A stretch of 64,000 bases of DNA from Acrocarpospora macrocephala. Its GTDB lineage: Bacteria; Actinomycetota; Actinomycetes; Streptosporangiales; Streptosporangiaceae. The notes beneath the pieces were generated by a model. That model saw nothing but the letters and a program-made list of their open reading frames with translations, did not search any database and had not been told where the DNA came from. The stretch covers positions 62,001 through 126,000 of the forward strand of contig NZ_BLAE01000032.1 in the NCBI RefSeq assembly GCF_009687865.1, read 5' to 3'. A program made the position numbers and the translations under genes. Positions 47,948-63,930 of the stretch are shown piece by piece; position 1 is the first letter of the stretch; the number at the start of each line of letters is the position of its first letter.

Positions 47948-49108
47948 TCACTCTGGCACGCGACGGGCGGGTCGTGGCAGGCCGAGGTTCTCGCGCAGAG
48001 TGGCGCCCGCATACGCGGTGCGGAAACGGCCACGCCGCTGCAGTTCAGGGACCACGAGGCGGGTGAACGCCGCCACCGGCCCCTGCAGGTAGGGGAACCC
48101 CACGGCGAACCCGTCGGCGGCGTCGCCGTCGAGCCAGTCCTCGATGATGTCGGCGATGTCGGCGGCCGTGCCGGCGAGGATGCCGTGCTGTTGGCGTTCT
48201 GCTGGATGCAGCAGAGCCGTGAACTCGCGAAGCTGCGCCTCGGCCTCGGCGCGTGTGTCTGCCACGAGCACCGAGGGGAACACAGCGAGCACGACGAGCG
48301 TGTCGGGATCGCGCCCGTGCGCCGCGGCGCGACGGCGGACGTCCTCGCGGGCCTCCCGCGCGTGCCAGCCACCACCGGACGCGAGCGCCAGGTCGGCCTC
48401 GCGCGCCGTGAGCTCCCGACCCGCCTCGCTCATCCCGGCTTGCAGGATAATCGGGTGCCCCTGCGGCGGACGGGCGATGTCGAGCGAGCCGGACACCCGG
48501 AAGCGCCTGCCTCGGTGGTCGAGCGGCTGGACCCGCACGGGGTCGAACACCTGCCCCTTTTCGCGGTCGTGGACGAACGCGTCGTCGTCGAAGCTGTCCC
48601 ACAGGCCCTTGACGACGTCGACGAACTCCGCGGCGACGTCGTAGCGCTCAGGGGCGCGCAGCAGTTGGGCGTCCAGCCCGAAATTCCGCGCCTCTGTCTC
48701 GAAGCGCGAGGTGACGACGTTCCAGCCGGCCCGGCCGCCGGAGAGATGATCGAGGGATGCCAGGAGCCGTGCGAGCGAGTAGGGCTGGGTGAGGCTCGTC
48801 GAAGCGGTGGTGATGAGACCGATGTGTCTGGTCGCCGATGCGATCGCCGAGAGGAGTAGCGTCGGGTCGAGCGACTCGTTCACCATCGAGTCGTGCTGGT
48901 GCGCTTCGGCGGGGCCGGGCATGGTCCCGGTGGTTTCGGAGAGGAACAGTGCGTCGAAGAGGCCGCGCTCCAACTCCTGTACGACCTCGATGAACGCCTT
49001 CACGTCGGTGGCCGGCCGGGCCGGGGTGTTCGGATGCCGCCATCCGCGCAGGTGCGAGCCGGTCGAGTGGGTGATCGCGACAAGGCGCGCTTGCTTCTTC
49101 GCGCTCAC
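47948..49108 (-). CDS. LLM-class flavin-dependent monooxygenase (NtaA/SnaA/DszA type), copy 1
   Basis: A 386-residue bacterial-luciferase-like TIM barrel: GLFDALFLSETTGTMPG, LSAIASATRHIGLITTASTS, ARLLASLDHLSGGRAGWNVV, GHPIILQAGMSEAGRELTAREADL. The SGGRAGWN segment is typical of the NtaA/SnaA/DszA subgroup, which uses reduced FMN from a separate reductase. GTG 49108 overlaps the preceding LLM stop (GTGA) and has GAGAGGAG upstream. It is the last gene of the ABC/LLM operon. The subgroup oxidises nitrilotriacetate- or organosulfur-type compounds; substrate here is unknown. Confidence 0.9.
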   Translation of the reverse strand: MSAKKQARLVAITHSTGSHLRGWRHPNTPARPATDVKAFIEVVQELERGLFDALFLSETTGTMPGPAEAHQHDSMVNESLDPTLLLSAIASATRHIGLITTASTSLTQPYSLARLLASLDHLSGGRAGWNVVTSRFETEARNFGLDAQLLRAPERYDVAAEFVDVVKGLWDSFDDDAFVHDREKGQVFDPVRVQPLDHRGRRFRVSGSLDIARPPQGHPIILQAGMSEAGRELTAREADLALASGGGWHAREAREDVRRRAAAHGRDPDTLVVLAVFPSVLVADTRAEAEAQLREFTALLHPAERQQHGILAGTAADIADIIEDWLDGDAADGFAVGFPYLQGPVAAFTRLVVPELQRRGRFRTAYAGATLRENLGLPRPARRVPE

Positions 49109-50274
49109 GCGACACTCCTCTCCGGTCGGGAAAGGCCAAGGAAGTCGCGGAGTGTCGCGCCCTCCGGCGGGGCGAAGAGGCCGCGCCGAGCGAGGATCGG
49201 CAGGACCTCGTCGAGGAAGGGGTCGGCGTCGGCGGGGATCAGCGGGAACCGCACGGTGAACCCGTCGGCGGCGCCCGCCTCGTGCCACTCGGCGATCCGG
49301 TCGGCGACCTGCTCGGGCGTGCCGACAACGAACAGCCCACCGGTGCCGTCCGGTACGACCGGGCGCGGCGTGGCGTCGCGGAGCAGGTCCCGCAGTTCGT
49401 CGCGTCGCGTCGTCGCCTCGCCCTCGGTCGAGGCGACGATGGGGCTGAGCCCCGGCCACACCTGGACGCTTCCCGATGCCCGGCCGACGGCTACGAGCGC
49501 GTCGTCGAGCCGTGCCCGGTAGGCGTGCGCGTCGTCGATCGACCGGGCGGCGGTTAGCACGACGTCGGCCTGACGGCCGGCGAACGCAATCTCGGTTGGA
49601 GTTGCGGCGGCGTGGAAGACGACGGGATGCCCCTGCGTCGGCCGCGACACGTTCAGGGGGCCAGCGACCCGGAAGTGCTTGCCCACGTGGTTGAGAGGGC
49701 GACGCCCTCGGGGGGTGAAGTACAGCCCGGTCCGCTTGTCGGCCACGATCGCATCGTCGGCGTAGCTGTCCCACAGCTCCCGCACGATCTGCAGGAACTC
49801 CTCGGCGCGCTCGTAGCGCTCCTCGTGCACGTCGTGCTCGTCTCGAACGAAGCCGCCGGCCTCCCGCGGCACGACGCTCGTGTCAACGTTCCACCCTGCC
49901 CGGCCGCCGGAGATGTGGTCAAGGCTCGCGAGGCGGCGGGCGACGTGGAACGGCTCGTTGAAGCTCGTCGTCGCCGTGGCCACGAGTCCGATCCGGTCGG
50001 TGCGCGTGGCGAGGGCTGACAGGAGCGTCAGCGGCTCGAACGAGTTCGCCTGTGTCGTACGGCTGAGCGAGTCGAGGTGCTCGTCCCGAACCGCCGCATC
50101 GTCGGCGACGAACAGGGCGGAGAACCCGGCCTCCTCGATTCGTCGAGCGTACGCGGCGACGGCGGCCAGGTTGAGTTCCGCGTCCGGTTGCGCCGAGGGA
50201 TGCCGCCACGCGGCGAGGTGCCCGCCGGGCGGGAGGGCGAGCGACGAGAACCGCAGCTTGCGCGGGGCGGTCAT
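49105..50274 (-). CDS. LLM-class flavin-dependent monooxygenase (NtaA/SnaA/DszA type), copy 2
   Basis: A 389-residue paralogue of the next gene: GFSALFVADDAAV, LSALATRTDRIGLVATATTSF, ARRLASLDHISGGRAGWNVD, GHPVVFHAAATPTEIAFAGRQADV. The ATG has GGAGG eight bases upstream, and that site lies inside the micro-ORF whose stop overlaps this ATG (ATGA). It needs FMNH2 from a reductase; none is encoded in this operon, but one survives at 56575-57084. Confidence 0.9.
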   Translation of the reverse strand: MTAPRKLRFSSLALPPGGHLAAWRHPSAQPDAELNLAAVAAYARRIEEAGFSALFVADDAAVRDEHLDSLSRTTQANSFEPLTLLSALATRTDRIGLVATATTSFNEPFHVARRLASLDHISGGRAGWNVDTSVVPREAGGFVRDEHDVHEERYERAEEFLQIVRELWDSYADDAIVADKRTGLYFTPRGRRPLNHVGKHFRVAGPLNVSRPTQGHPVVFHAAATPTEIAFAGRQADVVLTAARSIDDAHAYRARLDDALVAVGRASGSVQVWPGLSPIVASTEGEATTRRDELRDLLRDATPRPVVPDGTGGLFVVGTPEQVADRIAEWHEAGAADGFTVRFPLIPADADPFLDEVLPILARRGLFAPPEGATLRDFLGLSRPERSVA

Positions 50275-50357
50275 GCGAAATCCTCCATATCGCGCTTGTA
50301 GCCGGATGCGGACGCGCTCCGCCTCGCCAGTGGTGCGGCGTCTGTGGCGGGTGTCAT
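50271..50357 (-). CDS. 28-codon micro-ORF coupled on both sides by ATGA overlaps
   Basis: It is too short for usual gene calling. Its ATG (50357-50355) overlaps the stop of the ABC ATPase gene and its TGA overlaps the ATG of LLM copy 2, both as ATGA. GGGAGG lies about nine bases before the ATG, which is a good ribosome binding site inside the ATPase gene end. The peptide begins MTPATDAAPLARRSASAS, continues GYKRDMEDFA, and has no TM segment or cysteine. It may be a small partner protein or simply a device carrying ribosomes from the ATPase to the LLM start. Confidence 0.6.
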   Translation of the reverse strand: MTPATDAAPLARRSASASGYKRDMEDFA

Positions 50358-52117
50358 AGCTGGTTTCCTCCCGTGTAGGTGAGCGCTGGGTCGTGCTGGT
50401 CAGTGTTTGCGGAGGCGGGCGACGGTGACCGGTCCGGGGCGATGCTGTCCAGGAGCGAGCGGGTGTACGGGTGCCGGGGAGCGGTGAGCACCTCGGTCAC
50501 GGTCCCGTGCTCGACGACGGTGCCGTCCTTCATGACGAGCACGCGGTCGCAGACCTCATGGATCACGCCGAGGTCGTGGGAGATGAACAGCAGTGCCACC
50601 CCCAGCTCGTGGCGCAGCTGCGCGAGCAGGGCGAGGATCCGGGCCTGCACGGACACGTCCAGAGCGGACACCGGCTCGTCGCAGACAAGCACCTCCGGTC
50701 GCGGGGCGATCGCCCGGGCAATCGCGACACGCTGGCGCTGGCCGCCGGAGAGCTCACGACCACGCCGGTGCAGCACATCATCGTCGAGCCCGACGCGGCG
50801 AAGCAGCGCGGTGACCTCGGCCCGGGCCTTGATCGCGCCGCGACGGCCGGGTTGTCCGAGGGCTTCGGCGATGATGCGCTCGACGGTGAACCGTGGATCG
50901 AACGCGCTCAGCGGATCCTGGGAGATCAGCTGGATCCGGTGACGCTCGGATTGGCGTTCACGCTCTCGCAGCCCGCTCCACGCGGCCCCGTCGAGGCGCA
51001 CCTCGCCGTGATCGGGGGCGAGCATGGCCATCGCGATCTGCGCGGTCGTGCTCTTGCCCGAGCCGGATTCGCCGACGATTCCGAGGGCCTCTCCGGCATG
51101 CAGACCGAAGGTGACGCCGTCGACGGCCTGCCGCCATGTGCCGTCCGGCGACCGGAAGCGCTTGGAGACGGCATCGAGCTCAAGAATGGTCCGTCCGATC
51201 GGGTGGGAACGTCCCGGTCTGCTCGGGTCCGCGCGTGACGGCGCGACCGGACGTGTCGGCGAGTCCCGGGGAGACGTGTCCACGTCCGCTGCGGCGCGGA
51301 AGATTCGTCCCGGTGCGCCGAACGTGGGCACCGCGGCGAGCAACTCGCGCGTGTAGGGGTGTGCTGGCCGCAGCAGGATGTCGTCCGGGGTGCCCTGCTC
51401 GACGATCACGCCCGCGGCCATCACCGCGATTCGATCGGCCAGGCGCGCCACCACGGACAGGTCGTGGCTGATCAACAGTATGGCCGTGCCTGCGTCGCGC
51501 ATGTCCGAGAGCAGATCGAGGACCTGCCGCTGGACGGTCGCGTCCAGGGCCGTGGTCGGCTCATCGGCGATCACCAGCGACGGGGATGCCGCGATGGCCG
51601 AGGCGATCAGCGCTCGTTGCCGCAGCCCTCCGGACAGTTCGTGTGGATACTGCCGGGCGCGCACCCGCGGATCGGGGATCCCGACGCCCTGCAGCAGCGA
51701 GATCACCCGCTCGTCGCGATCTCGGCGGCTGCCCAGCTCATGCACGACCAAGGGCTCTGCGACCTCGTCGCCCACCAGGCGGAGGGGGTCCAGTGAGGTC
51801 AGCGCGTCTTGCAGGACGAAGCCGACGCGGGCGCCGCGCAACCTCCGCCAGTCGCGCTCGGCGAACCCCAGGAGCTGCTCGCCGGCGAAGGTCAACTCCT
51901 CGGCATCGACGGTCGCACGACTGCCTGTCAGGCCCAGCACGGCGCGGGCCGTGGCGCTCTTTCCCGAGCCCGACTCGCCGACCAGGGCGAGGCACTCGCC
52001 CGCTCCGAGGGCCAAGTCGATGCCACGCACCGCGGCCACCACCCCGTGCCGCGGCGTGGTGAAGCTGACGGTGAGATTCTTCGCGGTCAACAGCGGTGCC
52101 GATCCATTCTCGCTCAC
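50354..52117 (-). CDS. Peptide-type ABC importer ATPase, DppD-DppF fusion
   Basis: A 587-residue protein with two complete ABC domains. Domain 1 has Walker A LVGESGSGKSATA, signature LSGGLRQRALIAS and VIADEPTTALD. Domain 2 has IVGESGSGKSTTA, LSGGQRQRVAIARA and VCDEPVSALD. Each is followed by the HPYTR motif of oligopeptide-type ATPases (HPYTRELL, HPYTRSLL). A Pro/Arg/Ser-rich linker joins them. GTG 52117 overlaps the permease stop (GTGA). It drives import of the ligand bound by the SBP at 55576. Confidence 0.93.
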   Translation of the reverse strand: MSENGSAPLLTAKNLTVSFTTPRHGVVAAVRGIDLALGAGECLALVGESGSGKSATARAVLGLTGSRATVDAEELTFAGEQLLGFAERDWRRLRGARVGFVLQDALTSLDPLRLVGDEVAEPLVVHELGSRRDRDERVISLLQGVGIPDPRVRARQYPHELSGGLRQRALIASAIAASPSLVIADEPTTALDATVQRQVLDLLSDMRDAGTAILLISHDLSVVARLADRIAVMAAGVIVEQGTPDDILLRPAHPYTRELLAAVPTFGAPGRIFRAAADVDTSPRDSPTRPVAPSRADPSRPGRSHPIGRTILELDAVSKRFRSPDGTWRQAVDGVTFGLHAGEALGIVGESGSGKSTTAQIAMAMLAPDHGEVRLDGAAWSGLRERERQSERHRIQLISQDPLSAFDPRFTVERIIAEALGQPGRRGAIKARAEVTALLRRVGLDDDVLHRRGRELSGGQRQRVAIARAIAPRPEVLVCDEPVSALDVSVQARILALLAQLRHELGVALLFISHDLGVIHEVCDRVLVMKDGTVVEHGTVTEVLTAPRHPYTRSLLDSIAPDRSPSPASANTDQHDPALTYTGGNQL

Positions 52118-53004
52118 CGGGCATCCCTTCCTTCGAATCGGAGCTGCAGTGCCCGACCGACGGTGGCGATGCTGAGCACGGTGAGCGTGATCGCCAGTCC
52201 CGGGTAGACCCCGAGCAAGGGGGCCCGCTGCAAGTAGCCGCGCGCCTCGGCGAGCATGAGCCCCCACTCCGGTGCCGGCGGCTGCGGCCCGAGCCCGAGG
52301 AAACTCAGCGAGGCGCCTACGATGATCGTCTGGCCGAGGGTCATGGTCGCGTACACGAACAGCGGCGGCAGCACGTTGGGCACGATGTGGCGGAGGATCA
52401 CCGCGCGTGCCGGCAGTCCGAGGGAGACCGCGGCGGCGACATAGCCGGTGTTCTTGACCACCAGCGTCTGCCCCCGCACCAGTCGCGCGAACCCCGGGGC
52501 GATCCCCACGGCGACGGCCAGGGCGGCGTTCCGCTCGCCGGCGCCGAAGATGGCGATGACCAGGAGAACCATCAGCATGCTCGGGACCGACATGAACACG
52601 TCCGCCGATCGCATCGCGACCTCGTCGACCACCCGCCCGGACAAGCCCGCGGTCAACCCCCACACCAGTCCCGCGAGGAATCCGAGCCCGGTGGCGGTCA
52701 GCCCGAGCAGGAGCGAGATGCGGGCACCGTAAATCAGGCGGGAGAGCGTGTCGCGTCCCAGCCGGTCGGTGCCCAGCAGGTGCTCGGGGCTGGCGCCCTG
52801 CAGTGTGGCCGACAGATCGGTGACATCGGGGACGTGAACGCTGAGCAGGCCCGGCCAGGCCGCGGCCACGCCCACCAACAGCAGGAATACGCTCGCGCAC
52901 AGCAGCCCGCCCCGGCGCGCCCACTGTCCGGGCGCCGATCGCGGCGCGGCGGGGGTCGGTGGACACTCCGTACGGGAGGCTGTGGCCGGAAGCCGCGCGG
53001 TCAT
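52114..53004 (-). CDS. Peptide-type ABC importer permease (DppC-like)
   Basis: A 296-residue protein with an extended cytoplasmic N-terminus and the DppC pattern: EHLLGTDRLGRDTLSRLIYG, then the EAA loop region AAAVSLGLPARAVILRHIVPN and GASLSFLGLGPQPPAPEWG. ATG 53004 overlaps the DppB stop (ATGA). It forms the membrane channel with the next permease. Confidence 0.92.
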   Translation of the reverse strand: MTARLPATASRTECPPTPAAPRSAPGQWARRGGLLCASVFLLLVGVAAAWPGLLSVHVPDVTDLSATLQGASPEHLLGTDRLGRDTLSRLIYGARISLLLGLTATGLGFLAGLVWGLTAGLSGRVVDEVAMRSADVFMSVPSMLMVLLVIAIFGAGERNAALAVAVGIAPGFARLVRGQTLVVKNTGYVAAAVSLGLPARAVILRHIVPNVLPPLFVYATMTLGQTIIVGASLSFLGLGPQPPAPEWGLMLAEARGYLQRAPLLGVYPGLAITLTVLSIATVGRALQLRFEGRDAR

Positions 53005-53954
53005 GGCGTCGTCTCCCGCAGCCGAGGGTCCACGACCCGGTACAACGCGTCCACGATCACGTTGACGACCACGAACACCACGGCGGAGAGGATCACGACA
53101 CCGGCGACGACAGGGAAGTCGCGGCTGGTGACAGCGGTGACCAGCAACTGGCCGATGCCCGCCCGGGCGAATACGGTCTCCACGATCACAACGCCGCCCA
53201 GCAGCTCCGCCAGCGACCATCCCGACAGGGTGAGCACGGGGATCAGCGAGTGCCGCGCGACGTGACGCCACCGCAGTCGGCCGTGCGTGGCACCCCGGCT
53301 GAGCACCGTCGTCGCGAACGGCTGTTCCAAGGCACGCTCCAGCCCGTCCCGCATCACCTGGGCGAGTGCCGCGGCGATCGGCAGGGCCAGAGTCACCCAC
53401 GGCAGGACCAGCGAGGCGATCCCGTCGTTCCCGATGGCCGGGAAGATCCGCAGCTCGAACGAGAACACCGTCAGAGCGAGGATGCCCACCCATGCGCTTG
53501 GCGTGGAGAGGAGCACGAGCTCGACGGTCGAGGTGACGGCGCGCCCGCGAGGGCGCGCCGCGGTGGAGGTGGCGAGCACGACCGCCAGGACGAAGCCCAG
53601 CACCGCCGCGCCCAGCGCGAGAACCACCGTGGACCCCAGCTGCGACCAGATCAGCTCCGCCACCGGCGCGCCCCGCTGATAGGAGGTCCCCAGATCACCA
53701 TGGATCAGCCGGGCCAGGAAGTCGCCGTACTGCGCGATCAGGGGACGGTCCAGCCCGTACTCCCGGGTGATCGCCGCCAACACCTCGGGTGTGGCGCCGC
53801 CGAGGGATCCGCCGCCGACGATCAGCGTCGCCTTGTCGCCCGGCAGTAGTTGCATGCCGATGAACGTCACCGTCGCCGCGCCCCAGACCACGACGATCCC
53901 GAGCAATCCTCGGCGAATCCACCATCTGGCCTGCGGCGTTGTGCGCTCATTCAC
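53001..53954 (-). CDS. Peptide-type ABC importer permease (DppB-like)
   Basis: A 317-residue permease: first TM GLLGIVVVWGAATVTFIGMQLLPGD, then YGLDRPLIAQYGDFLARLIHGDLGTSY, and the EAA loop TTVLSRGATHGRLRWRHVARHSLIP followed by LLGGVVIVETVFARAGIGQLL. GTG 53954 overlaps the SBP stop (GTGA). It is typical of the first permease of Dpp/Opp/Nik systems. Confidence 0.92.
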   Translation of the reverse strand: MNERTTPQARWWIRRGLLGIVVVWGAATVTFIGMQLLPGDKATLIVGGGSLGGATPEVLAAITREYGLDRPLIAQYGDFLARLIHGDLGTSYQRGAPVAELIWSQLGSTVVLALGAAVLGFVLAVVLATSTAARPRGRAVTSTVELVLLSTPSAWVGILALTVFSFELRIFPAIGNDGIASLVLPWVTLALPIAAALAQVMRDGLERALEQPFATTVLSRGATHGRLRWRHVARHSLIPVLTLSGWSLAELLGGVVIVETVFARAGIGQLLVTAVTSRDFPVVAGVVILSAVVFVVVNVIVDALYRVVDPRLRETTP

Positions 53955-55576
53955 TCGCTCAGCCACGCGTCGTACAGCAGCGGCTGGGCTGTCGCACCGA
54001 AAGTCACGCCGTGCAGTGCATCGGAGGCGCCGAGGATGTACTGGTAGACGAAGATCGGCAGCACATGGGCGTCGGCCAGCACCTTCTTCTGGACCTGCGC
54101 GTAGCTCTTGTCCGCGACATCCTGATCGTTCGTGGTCAGGCCCGCGTCGAGCCACTGATCCAGCTCGTCCGAGTTGACGCGGGAGAGGTTCCAGCCTCCG
54201 ACGGCGTAGCTTCGCTCGGAGTTGAAGGCGTCCCGCAGGACGTCCGGATCGGACCGGCTGATGTTGCCGTCCATGATGTCGTAGTCGCCGCTTTCCAGTC
54301 GCGAGATCACCGTGGCGACGTCGACGTTGGGACGCGTGATCTTGATCCCGACCTTCTTGGCGTCGGCCTGGACGGCCTCGGGGACTATCGTGTTCGCACC
54401 GAGGTATGAGGGCCAGACCAGCTCCAACTCCTGCCCGTCCTTGGTCCGGTAGCCATCGGCGTTGGTCTCGGTCCAGCCGGCCTCCTCCAGCAGGTGGACC
54501 GCTTTGTCAGGGTCGTAGCCCTGCAAGGAATTGGCTGCGGAGGCGTCGTAGCTGGCCGTCGCCGGGCCGAGCACATTGGTCGCGACCTCGTAGGTCCCGA
54601 AATACACGTTCTTCACGATCGCCGGGACGTCGGTCGCGGCCTGGAGCGCCTGTCGGATCCGCAGACCGCTCGTGAGTCCGCGCGAGGAGTTGAAGAAGAG
54701 GCTGTAGTTGACGCCCGGCACCGACGCCGTCAACACCTGGAATCCGGCCGTTGAGGTCAGCGTCTCCACGTCGGCGGCGGGGACGGCCGCGATCGCCTGC
54801 GCTTCCCCGTTGGTCAGCGCCCCGTACCGGGTCGCGTCCTCGGTGACCAGGTCGAAGCGCAACTGTTCCAGGTAGGCGGGACCCTCGTGTGCCGCGCCGG
54901 TCGGCGGGGAGCTGTAATCCGGATTGCGATCCAGCACCAGCATCTTCTGCTGGTCCCAGGACACGTACGAGAACGGCCCCGTGCCGACCGGCTTATAGTC
55001 CGCGGCAGGCAGCGCCAGCTGCGCGGGACTCTGGATTGCAAGCTCAGTCCCCGACAGCGTCTCGAGAAAAGGCCGGAACGGCTGCGACAGCGTCACCTCG
55101 ACGGTCAGGTCGTCGATCACCCTCGAGTGGTCGTAGATTCCGAGAAGTATGGTGTTCTGCGACTTGGTCTCAGGATCGACGATGTGATCAAGGGCCGCCT
55201 TCACCGCCTCGGCTGTAAACGGGGTCCCGTCATGGAACTTGACCCCGTCTTTCAGCTCGAACGTGTAGACCGTCCCGTCCTCCGAGATGGTCCAGGAGGT
55301 GGCAAGCCACGGCTTGAACGTGCCCGGCTCGGTCTGCACCACGAGCGAGTCGAAGATGTTCCGGGTCATCAGCGCCGTCGCGTTACCTGGGCTCACCGCC
55401 GGGTCGAGGGTGATCGTGGCCTGGTTGATCAGATAGGTCAGCGTGCCGCCCTTGACAGGCTCCCCGTCCGTCGGCTCCGTCCCTGGCGAGGAGGTACAGG
55501 CCGCCAACGGCGCAATGAGGGCGACTCCCACTGCAGCCGAGGCCGCTATCTGGCGAACACTCCGGTGTCGGAACAC
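53951..55576 (-). CDS. ABC substrate-binding lipoprotein, SBP family 5
   Basis: About 541 residues. Signal peptide and lipobox LIAPLAAC (Cys near residue 24), then the SBP_bac_5 fold: GGTLTYLINQATITLDP, LATSWTISEDGTVYTFELKDGVKFHDGTPF, KPVGTGPFSYVSWDQQKMLVLDRNPDY. GTG 55576 was chosen because it is conserved, with GAGGAG ten bases upstream, in the duplicated copy at 57494; a GTG nine bases earlier is GCG there. It captures the operon's substrate outside the cell. Confidence 0.92.
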   Translation of the reverse strand: MFRHRSVRQIAASAAVGVALIAPLAACTSSPGTEPTDGEPVKGGTLTYLINQATITLDPAVSPGNATALMTRNIFDSLVVQTEPGTFKPWLATSWTISEDGTVYTFELKDGVKFHDGTPFTAEAVKAALDHIVDPETKSQNTILLGIYDHSRVIDDLTVEVTLSQPFRPFLETLSGTELAIQSPAQLALPAADYKPVGTGPFSYVSWDQQKMLVLDRNPDYSSPPTGAAHEGPAYLEQLRFDLVTEDATRYGALTNGEAQAIAAVPAADVETLTSTAGFQVLTASVPGVNYSLFFNSSRGLTSGLRIRQALQAATDVPAIVKNVYFGTYEVATNVLGPATASYDASAANSLQGYDPDKAVHLLEEAGWTETNADGYRTKDGQELELVWPSYLGANTIVPEAVQADAKKVGIKITRPNVDVATVISRLESGDYDIMDGNISRSDPDVLRDAFNSERSYAVGGWNLSRVNSDELDQWLDAGLTTNDQDVADKSYAQVQKKVLADAHVLPIFVYQYILGASDALHGVTFGATAQPLLYDAWLSE

Positions 55577-55683
55577 GGACCACACACTCCTCTGTTCGGG
55601 GCGACGGGCACGACGAGGCCGCCGCCGACGGCGCGACCTTCACCCGTGAGCGGGTCGATCGTCCGATGGCACAGCCCCATAAT

Positions 55684-55720
55684 GGGGACTATCCCCACAT
55701 ATTAGGTGGGGATAGTCCCC
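55684..55720. promoter_or_regulatory. Double TetR operator: perfect 15-bp inverted repeat
   Basis: Arms GGGGACTATCCCCAC (55684-55698) and GTGGGGATAGTCCCC (55706-55720) flank seven bases. Each arm itself contains the smaller palindrome GGGGA-N3-TCCCC, so two dimers could bind. It lies between the divergent SBP (55576) and TetR (55794) starts. Confidence 0.75.
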
Positions 55721-55732
55721 ACATATCGAGCC

Positions 55733-55756
55733 GTCCACATTGTGGACAGGTAGACT
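55733..55756 (+). promoter_or_regulatory. Palindrome GTCCACATTGTGGAC and -10 TAGACT before tetR
   Basis: A perfect palindrome of seven-base arms (55733-55747) is followed by TAGACT (55751-55756), a fair -10 about 40 bases before the TetR ATG. Both elements are kept in the duplicate copy, with one mismatch in the palindrome. Confidence 0.5.
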
Positions 55757-55793
55757 GCCGGGGACCCAACGGGCCGCGTGACACGGAGACGTC

Positions 55794-56366
55794 ATGACCA
55801 CCAAGACGGCGGTAACGCGTCCGCGCCGTGCCGACGCGCGCCGCAACCGCGAACGCTTGGTCGCCGCGGCCGCCACGGTGTTCGCCGAGGAGGGCGCGAA
55901 TGCACCGCTCGACAAGATCGCCCGCGCCGCCGGCATCGGCAACGCCACGATGTACCGCCACTTCCCCACACGGGAAGCGCTACTAGAGGCAGTCCTGCAC
56001 GACGTCTACCGTGAACTGATCGCTCTAGCCGAACAGCTCTCCACCGTGACGCCCGCGATCGACGCGGTCGACCGATGGCTACGAGCCTTCATCAACTACT
56101 CGCAGACCTACCTCGATCTGCCCGAGCCGATCATCGCCGCCGCGTACGACGAGACCTCCGCGCTGTACGCCTCGTGCAAGGCAATGCGTTCCGTGGCCAC
56201 TCGCCTGATCGGGCGGGCGCAGGAGGACGGCACGCTACGCGCCGACATCGACATCCTCGACCTGTGCGCGCAGGCGAGCGGGATCGCCTGGGCCACGCAG
56301 CGATCACCGGACAGGGAGCAGGTCACGCGGATGCTCGCCATGCTGATCAACGGGCTCCGCGCGTAG
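55794..56366 (+). CDS. TetR-family transcriptional regulator
   Basis: A 190-residue regulator. The N-terminal helix-turn-helix is NRERLVAAAATVFAEEGANA plus IARAAGIGNATMYRHFPTRE (about 18-60); the C-terminal helical domain resembles TetR_C SbtR-like proteins (YRELIALAEQLS, IIAAAYDETSALYASC). It is divergent from the ABC/LLM operon and separated from it by repeated GGGGA-N3-TCCCC palindromes, so it is very probably that operon's repressor. Confidence 0.9.
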   Translation: MTTKTAVTRPRRADARRNRERLVAAAATVFAEEGANAPLDKIARAAGIGNATMYRHFPTREALLEAVLHDVYRELIALAEQLSTVTPAIDAVDRWLRAFINYSQTYLDLPEPIIAAAYDETSALYASCKAMRSVATRLIGRAQEDGTLRADIDILDLCAQASGIAWATQRSPDREQVTRMLAMLINGLRA

Positions 56367-56574
56367 AGACACCCCCGCAGGTGGCGAGCGCGACACACGA
56401 CGGATCGTCCGCGCCGATGCCGACGGACAGGCCGTTCGGGTAGCTATCGCTGCACCCCTTCCGCCGACATCCCCGTCGATCACCCTGTCGCCAACACGAC
56501 TGCCGTAGAACCAACGCACGCGTGCGGCCCGCCTTCGAAGCCGCGGCCCCGGGATCGTGCTGCGAGCCCGTGGC

Positions 56575-57084
56575 TCAGCTCCTCCTGTGTGATCCGAAGG
56601 TGCGTTGCCAGTAGGTCAGCGGAGCCTCCTCAGTGGCATCCGCCGCGTTGACCGCACCAAGCACCAACGTGTGGTCGCCGGCGATCACGAACCGCGTGAC
56701 CGAGACCGCTACCCACGCCTGCCGCTCAGACAAGGCCGGCGCACCGTCTTCAATCGTCCACGCCACGCCCTCGAATCTGCGCACGCCCTTCTGCGCGAAG
56801 CGGCGAGCGATCTGATCTTGATGCGACGCCAGGACATTGATCCCCAACGTCGACCCGACGCGGAGCCTCGACAGCAGATCGGACTTGCTGTCGAGGGATA
56901 CCAGCATCATCGGCGGCGTCATGGACAAGGACATGAACGCGCTCACGGTCGTCCCGTGCGCGTCTCCTTCGGTGAGCACGGTGACGACCGAGACCGCCGC
57001 AGCGACGTTGGCCATCGCCGCGCGGAACGACTCCTCGAGGGCCTCGTCGCAACACCCTGACGCTGCGGAGCAAACGGGCCTCAT
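56575..57084 (-). CDS. Flavin reductase (HpaC/flavin-reductase-like domain)
   Basis: A 169-residue FMN-binding split-barrel reductase: AAAVSVVTVLTEGDAHGTTVSAFMSLSMTPPMMLVSLD, shown in parts (GTTVSAFMSLSMTPP is the hallmark), then LGINVLASHQDQIARRFA and the end GDHTLVLGAVNAADATEEAPLTYWQ. ATG 57084 overlaps the stop of the LLM remnant (ATGA), as in an original LLM-reductase operon. It makes reduced FMN for LLM monooxygenases. It survives intact next to a wrecked partner and may now serve the two LLM enzymes at 47948-50274. Its own transcription may come from the duplicated promoter region. Confidence 0.88.
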   Translation of the reverse strand: MRPVCSAASGCCDEALEESFRAAMANVAAAVSVVTVLTEGDAHGTTVSAFMSLSMTPPMMLVSLDSKSDLLSRLRVGSTLGINVLASHQDQIARRFAQKGVRRFEGVAWTIEDGAPALSERQAWVAVSVTRFVIAGDHTLVLGAVNAADATEEAPLTYWQRTFGSHRRS

Positions 57085-57494
57085 CCTCGCTTGGCCCATT
57101 CGGCGGCAATGAGCTCGTACGACCGCACTCGGGCGGCGTGATCGTGAGTAACGGTGGTGATTGCGATCTCACTGGCGTCCGTTGCGTCGCGAAGTCGCTC
57201 GAGTTGGTCCGCGACCGTGACCGGTGAACCAACGGATTGAGTTCTCACGCGGTCGGTCACCAGGGCGCGAGCATCTTCAGTCCAAGCGAAGGCCACGATC
57301 TCCTCGGCCGTGGGGAACGGAATAGCGCCCTCGCCGCGACGGATGCTTCGAACCCAGGCAGGGTAGCCCGCCACGAGCTCGCGGGCCTCTTCGTCGGTTT
57401 CGGCCACGACCGCATCGACCGACACCGCGACGTAGGGTTCAGGAAGTTCTGCAGCCGAGGCCGCTATCTGCTGAATACTCCGGTGTCGGAACAC
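57081..57494 (-). pseudogene. Chimeric remnant: SBP signal start fused to LLM monooxygenase C-terminus
   Basis: The first residues from GTG 57494 (VFRHRSIQQIAASAA) nearly equal the SBP start at 55576 (VFRHRSVRQIAASAA). The frame then switches to the C-terminal part of an LLM monooxygenase (YVAVSVDAVVAETDEEAREL, QSVGSPVTVADQLERLRDAT, ITTVTHDHAARVRSYELIA). Everything between the SBP start and the LLM end is missing, which implies an internal deletion in a paralogous operon. The fused frame stays open, so a 137-residue secreted fragment could be made, but enzymatic function is impossible. Confidence 0.85.
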
Positions 57495-57692
57495 GGACCA
57501 CGCACTCCTCTGTTTGGGCGACAGGCAGGACAAGGCCGCCGCCGGCGGCGCGACCTTCACCCGCGAGTGGATCGATCGTCCGATGGCGCTACCTCATAAC
57601 CGGGACTACCCCCACATACTAAACGGGGATAGTCCCCGTTTAATGGGAAGTCCACATTATGGACAGATAGACTGCCTGGCACCCAACGGGGC
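57449..57692. repeat. Duplicated regulatory region, copy B
   Basis: Diverged copy of 55531-55770: it keeps the SBP start and ribosome binding site, a GGGGATAGTCCCC operator, GTCCACATTATGGAC and TAGACTGCC. The divergent TetR gene that should follow is absent. Confidence 0.85.
57620..57642. promoter_or_regulatory. TetR-type operator in copy B
   Basis: Perfect 10-bp arms TAAACGGGGA and TCCCCGTTTA flank TAG. The core GGGGATAGTCCCC is identical to the one at 55708-55720, so the intact TetR could still control the surviving flavin reductase. A degraded second site (GGGACTACCCCC) lies at 57602-57613. Confidence 0.65.
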
Positions 57693-57826
57693 GATGCCGG
57701 GGCTGGGCGGGGTCCAGTGGCGTCGTTCAGGAGTGCGGGTGCGAGGGCTGGCTGTCCGATGAAGTGCGCGCCGTGACGGCGGGCTGCCCGGAGCGTGCAG
57801 CACAGAGGAGCGGCAGGCGGGGTCGG

Positions 57827-60501
57827 TCAGTCCTCGACGCGCAGTCCAGCCACGGCACGGCGTAGGACGTGTGTGCCGGGCGGGAGCTGCTGAGCTTGGG
57901 TGCCGCCGAGGGGGTGGAACTGTGCCTGTGCCCCGGTCGGGACGGTGACCCGGAACTCGACCTCGTCGCCGTCACGCGTCCATGCGCTCAGTACCTCGCC
58001 GTAGGGGGTCCGGATGGTTGCCTGAGCGGATGTGAGTCCTCCGCCGATCGACGGTGTCACGCCGATGATGCGGTATCCGGGTTCGATGGGGGTGATGCCG
58101 GCGATGTGCTCAGTGAGGAAGCGAGCGACCGCTCCGAGGGCGAAGTGGTTGTGGCTCATCTTCGCCTTGCCGGAGCGAGTGTAGCCCTCCCATGTCTCCC
58201 AAACGGTGGTCGCGCCGCGGCTGACCTGGTAGAGCCACGAGGGGTTCGTGTCCTGCATGAGCAGCTTCCAGGCGACGTCCGCGCGTCCTTCCGTGACGAG
58301 CACGTCCAGCAGGAGCGGCGTCGACAGGAAGCCGGTGCCCAGGTGCCCGCCGGCGCGGTCGATCAGTGTCAGCAGACGTTCGAGGGCCGCCGCACGCTCG
58401 GTCGGGTCGACGAGGCCGAAAGCGAGGGCGCGCACGTAGTCGTCCTGCCGGTCGGTGCCGATGCGTCCGTCGGCGGCAAGGAACGCCGCACGCCACGCCT
58501 CGCGCGTGCGGTCCGCGAGCTCTCGGAACCGCCGCTCCTCCTCCGATCGTCCGAGACATCGGCTATCCGGGAGAGGGTTCGTGCGGAGCGCTCGAAGTAT
58601 GCCGTCGCGACGACGGCGCCGCGCCTTCGGCCGTCGATGGCCGACAGGAAGGGGTTCTCACCGGGGCGTAGCCACTCGCCGAACTGGAAGCCGGTGTCGA
58701 CGATGTACCGCTCGATCTCGGGGCGTCCGGTTCCCTTCCGGCGGCGGGCACGGCTGGAGGCGCCTGCGGCGCGCCTCTCGCAATGCTCGACCCAGGCGAC
58801 CATCGAGTCGTACTGGTCGCGCAGCACCTGCACGTCTCCGTAGTACCGGTACAGGGTCCACGGGATCAGGACGCTCGCGTCGCTCCATCCCGCGGCGGTA
58901 CCGGCTGACTTGAGCTGCCCGCGCGGGCCGCCCGAGAACGTCGAGAACGACGACGGGATGACGACGGGGATCGTGCCGTCCACCGCCTGTTCGAGAGCGA
59001 GGCTGCGCAGGTAGCGCCGCAGGTAGGACTGCGCGCCCACGTAGGCGGTGGCCGTCGGCGCGAACACCTGGATGTCCCCGGTCCACTCGGACCGTTCCCG
59101 CGTCGGGCCATCGGTGGAGGTGTCCATGAAGTTCGACCGCAGGGACCATCCGACGTTGCTCCACAGCTGGTTCAGCCGCGCGTCGGAGCTGTGGAACTGC
59201 CCGGTCTGCTCCAGATCGGAGGAGATCACGATCCCGCGCACGTCCTCAGACGCGAGGCCAGCGTCCAAGCCCTCGACGGACACGTAGCGGAAGCCGTGGA
59301 TCGTGAACCACGGCTGCCAGAACGCGTCATCACCGTCCAGGATTACGACATCACGCTGGTACCACCGGCCGACGGGGAAAGGGTGGATGTAATCGAGGTC
59401 GAGCTCACCGTCCGGGCGCTCGATCTCCGAGTGCGTCAGCCTCACCCGGGCGCCCGCCGGCCCGCGGAGCCGGATGCGCACGACCCCGGCGAAGTTCTGA
59501 CCGAAGTCGACGACCTGCTTGCCCGACGGCAGGCGCCGGATGCGCTGCGGCGCCAACTCGCCGACCTGCTGGACGCGTTCGACGCTCTCAGCGACGAGCG
59601 TTCGCGGCTCGGAGAGGACCTCGACGGGCCGGAATCGGGCGGGATGCTCTGCGGAGCGCAGCCAGTCGTCGTCTGGGATCCGCAGGTCGACGCGCTCGCC
59701 GGTCTTCGGGTCGGCGCTCGTGATGCGCCCGCCGGCGGCGCGCCATGTGCCGTCGCTGGCGGTCACCTGTGTCGTGCCGTCCGCCAGCTCCAGGTGCACC
59801 TGGAGGAGACCGGCGAGCCGGTCGCCGTACACCGCGCGGTGGTTCTCGAAGCCGAGCGAGCCCCGGAAACGGCCGTCGCCGAGCGCGAGGGCGACGACGT
59901 TCGCCCCACGGGCGAAGGCGCTGGTCACGTCGTAGGTCACGTACTCGACCTCGTGGTCGAACGGCGTCCAACGAGGCACCAGCGCCGTCCCGGTGATGTC
60001 GTGTCCGTTGACGAAGAGCCGATGCCATCCCAGCGACGACACGTACGCGCGGGCCCGGACGACGTCCGCGGGCAGCTGCGCCACCCCCCGCAGGTACATG
60101 GCCGCCGGGTCCTTCTCAGCGGGCCGGGCCGGGTCGGTCACCCACGCTGCCGACCAGTCCGACGTCTGCAGCAGACCCGTCTCGAAGCGCGCCGGCTCGC
60201 TCCACGGACCTGGCTCGTCGTGCGACGCTTCCCAGACGCGCACCCGCCATGTGTAAGCGGCACCGGACTCCAACTCGTCGCCACCGTACGACACGCCCGA
60301 ACGCTCGGCACCCTCGACTCGACCGGTCTCCCACACCCGCCGTCCCGTCGCGACGTCGGGCCCCTCGGTGACCTGCACTTCCCACGCCACCTGATCGGCG
60401 GCGACCGCGGGGAGGCGCCAGCCGAACTCGGGCGTGCGCGCATCCATGCCGAGCGGTGCGTGGCGGCCGTTCACGCGAAGGTCCATCGGTGATGCAGGCA
60501 T
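57827..60501 (-). pseudogene. Alpha-L-rhamnosidase (GH78), frameshifted
   Basis: A gene for about 890 residues. The N-terminal two thirds (LRVNGRHAPLGMDARTPEFGWRL; AYVSSLGWHRLFVNGHDI; GRWYQRDVVILDGDDAFWQPWFTIHGFRYVSVEG; STDGPTRERSEWTGDIQVFAPTA) match GH78. At about 58553-58558 the frame is lost; the other frame continues directly with EEERRFRELADRTREAWRAAFLAADG and the GH78 end (KMSHNHFALGAVARFLTEHIAGI, IRTPYGEVLSAW). One missing base (GTCTC for an expected GTCCTC) explains it. ATG 60501 has GGGAG upstream. It would release L-rhamnose; as read it gives two truncated products. Confidence 0.85.
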
Positions 60502-60517
60502 GAGACTCCCGTTCCTC

Positions 60518-60559
60518 GTCGAAAAGACCGACGCCAAAGTATTTCACTTTCGACAATAC
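60518..60559. promoter_or_regulatory. Nested inverted repeats between GH78 and MarR genes
   Basis: GTCGAAA (60518-60524) pairs with TTTCGAC (60548-60554), and GTATT (60539-60543) pairs with AATAC (60555-60559). They lie in the AT-richer divergent promoter and are candidate MarR binding sites. Confidence 0.4.
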
Positions 60560-63095: not shown

Positions 63096-63350
63096 TCAGT
63101 AGTGGTAGCGGGCCTGAAGGATGATCAGTTCGTCGTCGCGTGGGAGGTAGACGAGCCGGTGTTCTTCGGTGATCCTTCGGGACCAGGCTCCCTGGAGGGC
63201 ATGTTTGAGCGGTTCGGGTTTGCCGATGCCTGCGTATGGGTCGCGAAGGGTGTCTTCGATAAGCCTGTTTATGCGTTTCAGGACCTGGCGGTCGGTGGTG
63301 AGCCAGGAGGTGTAGTCCTCCCAGGCTTCGGGGGTGAAGGAGAGCTTCAT
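63096..63350 (-). CDS. RelE-superfamily toxin, YoeB/Txe type
   Basis: An 84-residue protein matching YoeB throughout: FTPEAWEDYTSWLTTDRQVLKRINRLIED, in parts, then GIGKPEPLKHALQGAWSRRI, the catalytic-region EEHRLVYLPRDDELIILQARYHY with the C-terminal His-Tyr. YoeB toxins cleave mRNA at the ribosome. The ATG overlaps the antitoxin stop (ATGA). Confidence 0.92.
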   Translation of the reverse strand: MKLSFTPEAWEDYTSWLTTDRQVLKRINRLIEDTLRDPYAGIGKPEPLKHALQGAWSRRITEEHRLVYLPRDDELIILQARYHY

Positions 63351-63604
63351 GGTTGGTCGTCGGCGATGAGTTCGCGGATTTCGTGCCGGCCTTCCAGGGC
63401 GTGCTGGTAGGAGGCGATGAGCCTGCGCATGTTGGCCGGTGAGCGCAGGAGGTGCGCCGTCTCCTTCAGCGCTTCGTACTCGGCGGCGGGTACGAGGTAG
63501 GCGCGGTTGTGTTTGGAGACGATCTCCACGGCCAGGCTGTCCTCGTTCACCTCGTCGATGAGAGGGAACAGCCGGCGCCGGGCTTCGCTTGCAGTGATCG
63601 ACAT
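63347..63604 (-). CDS. Antitoxin, Phd/YefM family
   Basis: An 85-residue protein: MSITASEARRRLFPLIDEVNEDSLAVEIVSKHNRAYLVPAAEYEALKETAHLL, in parts, is the YefM DNA-binding and dimerisation domain, followed by a helical toxin-binding tail. ATG 63604 has GGTGGAGG upstream. It neutralises the downstream toxin and represses the pair's promoter. Confidence 0.92.
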   Translation of the reverse strand: MSITASEARRRLFPLIDEVNEDSLAVEIVSKHNRAYLVPAAEYEALKETAHLLRSPANMRRLIASYQHALEGRHEIRELIADDQP

Positions 63605-63620
63605 CAGAAACCTCCACCCA

Positions 63621-63643
63621 ATCTGGTACCAGATATCGTACCA
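63621..63643. promoter_or_regulatory. YefM-type operator: two GTAC-centred palindromes 12 bp apart
   Basis: The perfect palindrome ATCTGGTACCAGAT (63621-63634) and a second site TATCGTACCA (63634-63643) have GTAC centres 12 bp apart. That is the spacing described for YefM-YoeB autoregulatory operators. Confidence 0.65.
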
Positions 63644-63660
63644 CTCTGGTCGAGGGTGGG

Positions 63661-63930
63661 GTTGCCTGCTGTACATGGAGCAAAGCGCTCACGCGAGCCA
63701 AGCTCAGCGGCTTCCACTTTCACGATCTGCGGCATACAGGGAACACCTTCGCCTCGCAGTCCGGCGCGACGTTACGCGAGCTGATGAACCGCACGGGCCA
63801 CTCGACCACCCGGGCCGCACTGATCTACCAGCACACCGCGATGGAGTGGGATCGGGCCATCGCTGACGCGCTCGGGAAGCCCGCCGAGGAAGCGCTCAAG
63901 AAGCAAGATCCAAGTGGAACGGGCACGTAG
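63661..63930 (+). pseudogene. Tyrosine recombinase (integrase), C-terminal fragment
   Basis: From about 63697 the frame reads FHFHDLRHTGNTFASQSGAT, LRELMNRTGHSTTRAALIYQ, HTAMEWDRAIADAL and ends at TAG 63930. It contains the HxLRH box, the GHS box and the catalytic Tyr of phage-type integrases. The core-binding domain and first catalytic Arg are missing; upstream is the toxin-antitoxin promoter. It is a remnant of an integrative element. Confidence 0.8.

What the first reader, a model, noticed from the sequence alone, without database searches (positions are those of the whole stretch)
55531..57692. Duplicated ABC/LLM operon with one copy collapsed to a chimeric gene
The regulatory region and SBP start of the intact operon recur at 57449-57692, but there the SBP signal segment runs directly into an LLM monooxygenase C-terminus at about 57450, then into an intact flavin reductase by ATGA. 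It shows a paralogous SBP...LLM-reductase operon reduced by one large in-frame deletion, leaving a possibly exported 137-residue hybrid.
Basis: partly seen in the sequence, partly recalled or inferred. Interest (0 to 1): 0.7.

Follow-up and report, generated by a model that had tools for sequence, protein, structure and literature searches.

The report
Collapsed paralogue of a monooxygenase transport operon
A second, older version of a transport-and-oxidation operon has apparently lost its middle, leaving a start region fused to the tail of an enzyme and, behind it, an intact flavin reductase that may now work for the neighbouring complete operon.

Summary
Window 57449-57693 aligns with 55531-55776 (85% over 246 bp) and similarity stops sharply at CTGCAG. 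The frame then continues into the C-terminal two fifths of an MsnO8-family luciferase-like monooxygenase (LLM), then by ATGA into an intact flavin reductase. The hybrid frame has 137 residues from GTG 57494.

Copy B is not a copy of neighbouring operon A, which carries an NtaA/DmoA-type LLM and no reductase; B is an older paralogue. Four of 14 mapped relative loci have the substrate-binding protein (SBP) upstream and the MsnO8 LLM as last LLM gene, about 9 kb apart; one of 27 has a flavin reductase directly behind MsnO8. No relative unites all three. The rest of B's SBP was not found elsewhere in the own genome, so deletion fits best. Export is unlikely: most of the hydrophobic core and the lipobox are gone.

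Most likely the hybrid is a non-enzymatic remnant, at most a translated leader, and the conserved reductase is the working product, behind a palindromic operator like A's. In a sister species a similar operator precedes another reductase-LLM operon. Transcription and binding are untested. A known process; modest interest.

The parts
57596..57642 (-). Copy B operator region: site B1 57620-57642 (TAAACGGGG-ACTAT-CCCCGTTTA on the minus strand, 9 of 9 arm positions paired) and site B2 57596-57618 (3 of 9 paired)
57449..57693 (-). Copy B: regulatory region, leader and first codons of an SBP gene, 85% identical to 55531-55776
57081..57494 (-). Hybrid ORF, GTG start, 137 aa: 15 SBP residues fused at 57449-57454 to the C-terminal two fifths of an MsnO8-family LLM
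56575..57084 (-). Intact flavin reductase (PF01613), start overlaps the hybrid's stop (ATGA)
55794..56366 (+). TetR-family regulator (TetR_N, TetR_C_43), divergent from operon A
55679..55725 (-). Operon A operator pair: A1 55703-55725 (8 of 9 arm positions paired), A2 55679-55701 (5 of 9)
53951..55576 (-). Operon A family-5 SBP (PF00496), lipoprotein-like N-terminus, GTG start
53001..53957 (-). Operon A permease 1 (BPD_transp_1); 5' end approximate
52114..53034 (-). Operon A permease 2 (BPD_transp_1); 5' end approximate
50354..52102 (-). Operon A double ATPase (two ABC_tran stretches, oligo_HPY); 5' end approximate
49105..50274 (-). Operon A LLM1, NtaA/DmoA family (TIGR03860)
47948..49108 (-). 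Operon A LLM2, luciferase-like monooxygenase (PF00296; subfamily not scanned); 5' end approximate

Best explanation
57693-56575 is the remnant of a diverged paralogue (B) of the neighbouring ABC transporter/LLM operon. B probably once held an SBP, permeases, ATPase, LLMs, an MsnO8 LLM and a flavin reductase. A deletion of about 9 kb (size inferred from relatives), perhaps helped by a short match at the join (inferred), joined the first codons of the SBP gene to the last two fifths of the MsnO8 LLM gene. The hybrid lacks the first three fifths of the LLM and most of the export signal, so it should be neither a working monooxygenase nor an exported protein. Its open frame still leads ribosomes into the flavin reductase by the ATGA overlap. 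The likely working product is therefore the reductase, placed under the old SBP-type control region with a TetR-type palindromic operator; it could supply reduced flavin to the two LLMs of operon A, which has no reductase of its own. Shown: anatomy, breakpoint, operator sequence, conserved reductase, arrangements in relatives. Inferred: transcription, regulator binding, shared control with A, flavin supply.
For: (1) Alignment and sharp break. (2) The LLM part begins at TIGR03558 position 198 of 325. (3) Of 14 distinct MsnO8-LLM places mapped, 4 have the SBP upstream and the MsnO8 LLM as last LLM gene on one strand (G000:C11, G004:C94, G001:C17, G036:C40); from SBP match to MsnO8 C-terminal match is 9.0-9.2 kb. 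(4) Of 27 distinct places with the MsnO8 C-terminus, 1 (G102:C633) has a flavin reductase directly behind it: LLM-LLM-LLM-MsnO8-reductase. (5) By DNA search the own genome holds, besides A and the B stub, only partial SBP matches at 67-68%. (6) In sister species G004 operon A is 98.6% identical and is followed, after a mobile-element insertion, by a 91-bp ATPase tail (84%) of another paralogue and a TetR / flavin reductase-LLM-LLM cluster, so a paralogue of about B's divergence existed in the genus. (7) GGGGANTATCCCC occurs 3 times in G000 (two at A, one at B) and 3 times in G004 (two at A, one just upstream of its reductase-LLM-LLM operon), 0 in G001-G003. (8) B1 differs from A1 by 6 arm bases yet is a 9/9 palindrome; six random changes to A1 give that in 3e-5 of trials, and to B1 keep 8 or more pairs in 1.2e-3 (site chosen after seeing it). 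(9) The reductase departs from 2 of 42 conserved columns, its 23 relatives from 0-6; the LLM part from 12 of 59, its 26 relatives from 0-5. (10) 7 of 10 stretches around the reductase's nearest relatives in the class hold an LLM gene. (11) MsnO8 itself works with a separate flavin reductase, MsnO3 (PMC8093152, passages).
Against: No relative with SBP, MsnO8 and a following reductase together was found. 26 of 27 places have no reductase directly behind MsnO8 (one of them, L031, is cut by a contig end), though 2 (L034, L035) have one upstream on the same strand; 2 of 14 places have MsnO8 before the SBP. The LLMs beside the reductase's nearest relatives (58-67%, another family, f28) are not of MsnO8 type (at most 27% matches), and no SBP, permease or TetR match lies there, so the reductase may have joined from elsewhere. 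The operator count is not itself above chance: the reversed control pattern gave 2 in G000; the place, not the number, is the argument, and A and B share it by descent. The LLM part keeps GC1/GC2 like its relatives; only GC3 is low (0.68 against 0.83-0.99), and the G004 paralogue cluster is low too (0.71-0.76), so GC3 is no sign of decay. The genome has 16 reductase-type matches. Site B2 has 3 of 9 arm positions paired against 5 in A2. No sigma-70-like promoter was seen in 55500-57850.
Confidence: 0.6

Rival explanations
1. Partial duplication: only the control region and first SBP codons were copied and landed in front of an already truncated, unrelated LLM-reductase pair (promoter capture without any B operon).
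For: B holds nothing of A beyond control region and 15 codons; no complete B operon found; the reductase's nearest relatives do not lie beside SBP operons of this kind.
Against: B is 15% diverged while A is 98.6% identical between two species, and B1 changed with palindrome symmetry kept, pointing to long independent function; the fused parts match the two ends of a known operon layout.
Confidence: 0.22
2. Dead remnant: hybrid and reductase are both unused, part of a decaying stretch.
For: The next gene (rhamnosidase 57827-60537) is split between two frames; a similar operon in another genus member (G002:C46) is broken, with frame change and a stop in its MsnO8 part; the hybrid's LLM part departs from 12 of 59 conserved columns.
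Against: Reductase full length and conserved; hybrid frame open to the ATGA; B1 palindrome perfect.
Confidence: 0.15
3. The hybrid has its own selected function.
For: In-frame fusion, open frame of 137 codons, GC1/GC2 like true genes.
Against: 12 of 59 conserved LLM columns changed, three fifths of the enzyme missing, weak export signal, B region found in no other family genome searched.
Confidence: 0.03

Closest known systems
MsnO8 LLM with flavin reductase MsnO3 (mensacarcin pathway, Streptomyces bottropensis; PMC8093152, passages)
   Same: Same LLM subfamily (TIGR03558) and a separate flavin reductase partner
   Different: Here only the last two fifths of the LLM remain, fused to SBP codons; the setting is a transporter operon, not a polyketide cluster
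ssuEADCB-type two-component alkanesulfonate systems (recalled; papers seen as a search listing only)
   Same: ABC transporter, FMN-dependent LLM and flavin reductase serving one uptake-and-oxidation pathway
   Different: Family-5 SBP with oligopeptide-type ABC, NtaA/DmoA and MsnO8 LLMs, PF01613 reductase, TetR-type regulator; substrate unknown
Gene fusions and pseudogenes left by deletions inside operons (general knowledge, recalled)
   Same: Parts of an upstream and a downstream gene joined, promoter kept, next gene intact
   Different: The join keeps the frame and the ATGA coupling, and one operator of the lost operon is still palindromic

Membership tests
MsnO8-family LLM (TIGR03558) | Match above the curated cut-off (166.95 bits) | tested here: not met
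   82.3 bits, positions 198-324 of 325 only: a fragment of a member, not a member
Flavin reductase-like domain (PF01613) | Full domain above gathering score | tested here: met
   106.8 bits against 27, positions 1-150 of 153
Flavin reductase-like domain (PF01613) | NAD(P)H:flavin reductase activity | not testable with these tools
   needs an assay
Lipoprotein or Sec-exported protein (the hybrid) | Hydrophobic core and cleavage site or lipobox | tested here: not met
   Best 15-residue hydropathy 1.19 against 2.20 for A's SBP; the stretch VGVALIAPLAAC of A is absent. No signal-peptide predictor was run
Operon under the TetR of 55794-56366 | Operator core shared with A | tested here: met
   GGGGANTATCCCC at A (2) and B (1), nowhere else in the 12.1 Mb assembly, reversed control 2; outer bases of B1 differ from A1
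Operon under the TetR of 55794-56366 | Binding and regulation | not testable with these tools
   needs EMSA or transcript data
Duplicate of operon A | Same gene content | tested here: not met
   A carries an NtaA/DmoA LLM and no reductase; B an MsnO8 LLM fragment and a reductase

The most novel reading that the evidence does not exclude
The collapse is adaptive rewiring: deletion of a redundant transporter and LLMs moved a flavin reductase under the operator type shared with the surviving operon, with the hybrid kept as a translated coupling leader, so one regulator now controls uptake, oxidation and flavin supply from two promoters.
Probability: 0.25. Interest if true: 0.5.

Novelty: new member of a known kind. 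Interest (0 to 1): 0.3.

Why it matters
It shows how a paralogous catabolic operon can shrink to a reductase gene behind an operator that stays palindromic, and gives a testable case of operon rewiring by deletion. It also warns annotators: the 137-residue frame could be named a luciferase-like monooxygenase although most of the enzyme is missing.

Tried and rejected
Export of the hybrid: rejected, most of the hydrophobic core lost. GC3 as a sign of decay: dropped, because the G004 paralogue cluster has similarly low GC3 and GC1/GC2 are normal. Third own-genome match on contig C69: short and GC-rich, with only general ATPase matches beside it; set aside. Single operator matches in G021 (two), G026 and G030 and G038: no match to operon A's transporter genes, LLMs, TetR or the reductase beside them in the stretches searched (only SDR matches in L057 and L059); taken as chance, as the reversed control also gave scattered matches. 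The genome-contig scan with the reductase gave one relative, Agromyces, 52%, with no LLM or SBP match in its stretch. Own-genome search for other pieces of B covered the SBP and the ATPase (whose list was cut; own-genome rows shown other than A are at most 76%); the permeases of B were not searched for. Literature searches were few and do not show that the arrangement is unpublished. Rows left out of the column tests: matches under 50% identity or 110 residues (LLM) or under 42% or 140 residues (reductase), ones with stops, and duplicates.

Full report
Observation. The minus-strand control region and SBP start of operon A (55776-55531) recur at 57693-57449 with 85% identity. The match ends sharply at CTGCAG. 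The frame from GTG 57494 to the stop at 57081 (137 aa) then runs into the C-terminal part of an MsnO8-family LLM (TIGR03558 positions 198-324 of 325) and by ATGA into a complete PF01613 flavin reductase. The start codon chosen by the ORF finder for A (55585) is GCG in B; the likely shared start is three codons on.

What operon A is. A TetR regulator (55794-56366, +) is divergent from SBP, two permeases, a double ATPase, LLM1 of the NtaA/DmoA family and LLM2. I see no reductase gene in it. Between TetR and SBP lie two operators with the core GGGGACTATCCCC, facing each other.

What B was. Relatives show a layout from which the fusion can come. Of 14 distinct MsnO8-LLM places mapped, four carry the SBP upstream and the MsnO8 LLM as last LLM gene on one strand, 9.0-9.2 kb apart by match starts (in G004:C94 another same-strand gene follows MsnO8). 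Two have MsnO8 before the SBP. One (G002:C46) is itself broken: an SBP N-terminal match is followed within about 100 bases by what reads, by eye, like an LLM C-terminus, and its MsnO8 part has a frame change and a stop. One has only a weak SBP match on the other strand; six show no such SBP in the stretch fetched. Of 27 distinct places holding the MsnO8 C-terminus, one (G102:C633) has a flavin reductase directly behind MsnO8; two have one upstream on the same strand; one of the 27 is cut by a contig end. No relative unites SBP, MsnO8 and a following reductase. The nearest reductases (58-67%) are in another family of the class. Of the 10 stretches fetched around class relatives, 7 hold an LLM match of the LLM1/LLM2 kind; MsnO8-type matches there reach only 27%, and no SBP, permease or TetR match was seen.

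Deletion or copy. By DNA search the rest of B's SBP is not elsewhere in the own genome: besides A and the B stub only partial matches at 67-68% (assembly 98.6% complete, 166 contigs). The permeases of B were not searched for, and the ATPase list was cut. In sister species G004 operon A is 98.6% identical over window 50122-56544; the match ends about 30 bases before the reductase gene, and the 683 bases left on that contig hold no reductase match. G004 has no reductase match at E <= 1e-27 at all. G004 also has, past a transposase/group II intron insertion in LLM1, a 91-bp ATPase tail (84%) of another paralogue, then a TetR of the same domain pair, a flavin reductase and two LLMs. So a paralogue of about B's divergence existed in the genus. 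I favour deletion inside a once complete B; one event or several cannot be told.

Is it alive? The reductase departs from 2 of 42 conserved columns (23 relatives: 0-6). The LLM part departs from 12 of 59 (26 relatives: 0-5) and has the longest terminal branch (0.387, next 0.306): relaxed constraint, or an odd lineage. Its GC1 and GC2 are normal and its low GC3 is shared by the G004 paralogue cluster, so GC3 is no evidence. The B1 operator differs from A1 at six arm bases, all in facing pairs, and is a perfect palindrome; 3e-5 of random trials from A1 reach that, and 1.2e-3 of trials from B1 keep 8 or more pairs (the site was picked after seeing it). B2 pairs at 3 of 9. GGGGANTATCCCC occurs in G000 only at A and B and in G004 only at A and before its reductase-LLM-LLM operon; the reversed control gave 2 in G000, so the number alone means little.

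Mechanism. The hybrid lacks three fifths of the LLM and most of the hydrophobic core and the lipobox, so I read it as a remnant that serves at most as a translated leader. The reductase, behind a TetR-type operator, may feed the LLMs of A; MsnO8 and MsnO3 are a known LLM/reductase pair (PMC8093152, passages). Transcription, binding and flavin transfer are inferred. An assembly error at the join cannot be excluded without reads.

Verdict. Observation confirmed, interpretation partly supported, process known, interest modest.

Noticed in passing
window 57827-60537 (-): Alpha-L-rhamnosidase (Pfam rhamnosidase domains) split between two reading frames, with the change near 58435-58560: a frameshift or sequencing error.
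   Followed up: partly
L055 6803-10485 (G004:C24): In the sister species LLM1 of operon A is cut by a transposase/integrase element that appears to hold a group II intron reverse transcriptase/maturase.
   Followed up: partly
L068 7157-9510 (G002:C46): A second, separately broken SBP/LLM/MsnO8 operon in the same genus: such operons may lose their middles repeatedly.
   Followed up: partly
window 63096-63701 (-): YoeB-like toxin and Phd/YefM antitoxin pair (Pfam).
   Followed up: no
L037/L062 (G000:C11): Own genome carries two convergent oligopeptide-type ABC operons around a run of four LLM genes.
   Followed up: no
window 55733-55747 and 57650-57664: A further near-palindrome upstream of the operators, GTCCACATTGTGGAC in A, with one change in B (read by eye).
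   Followed up: no
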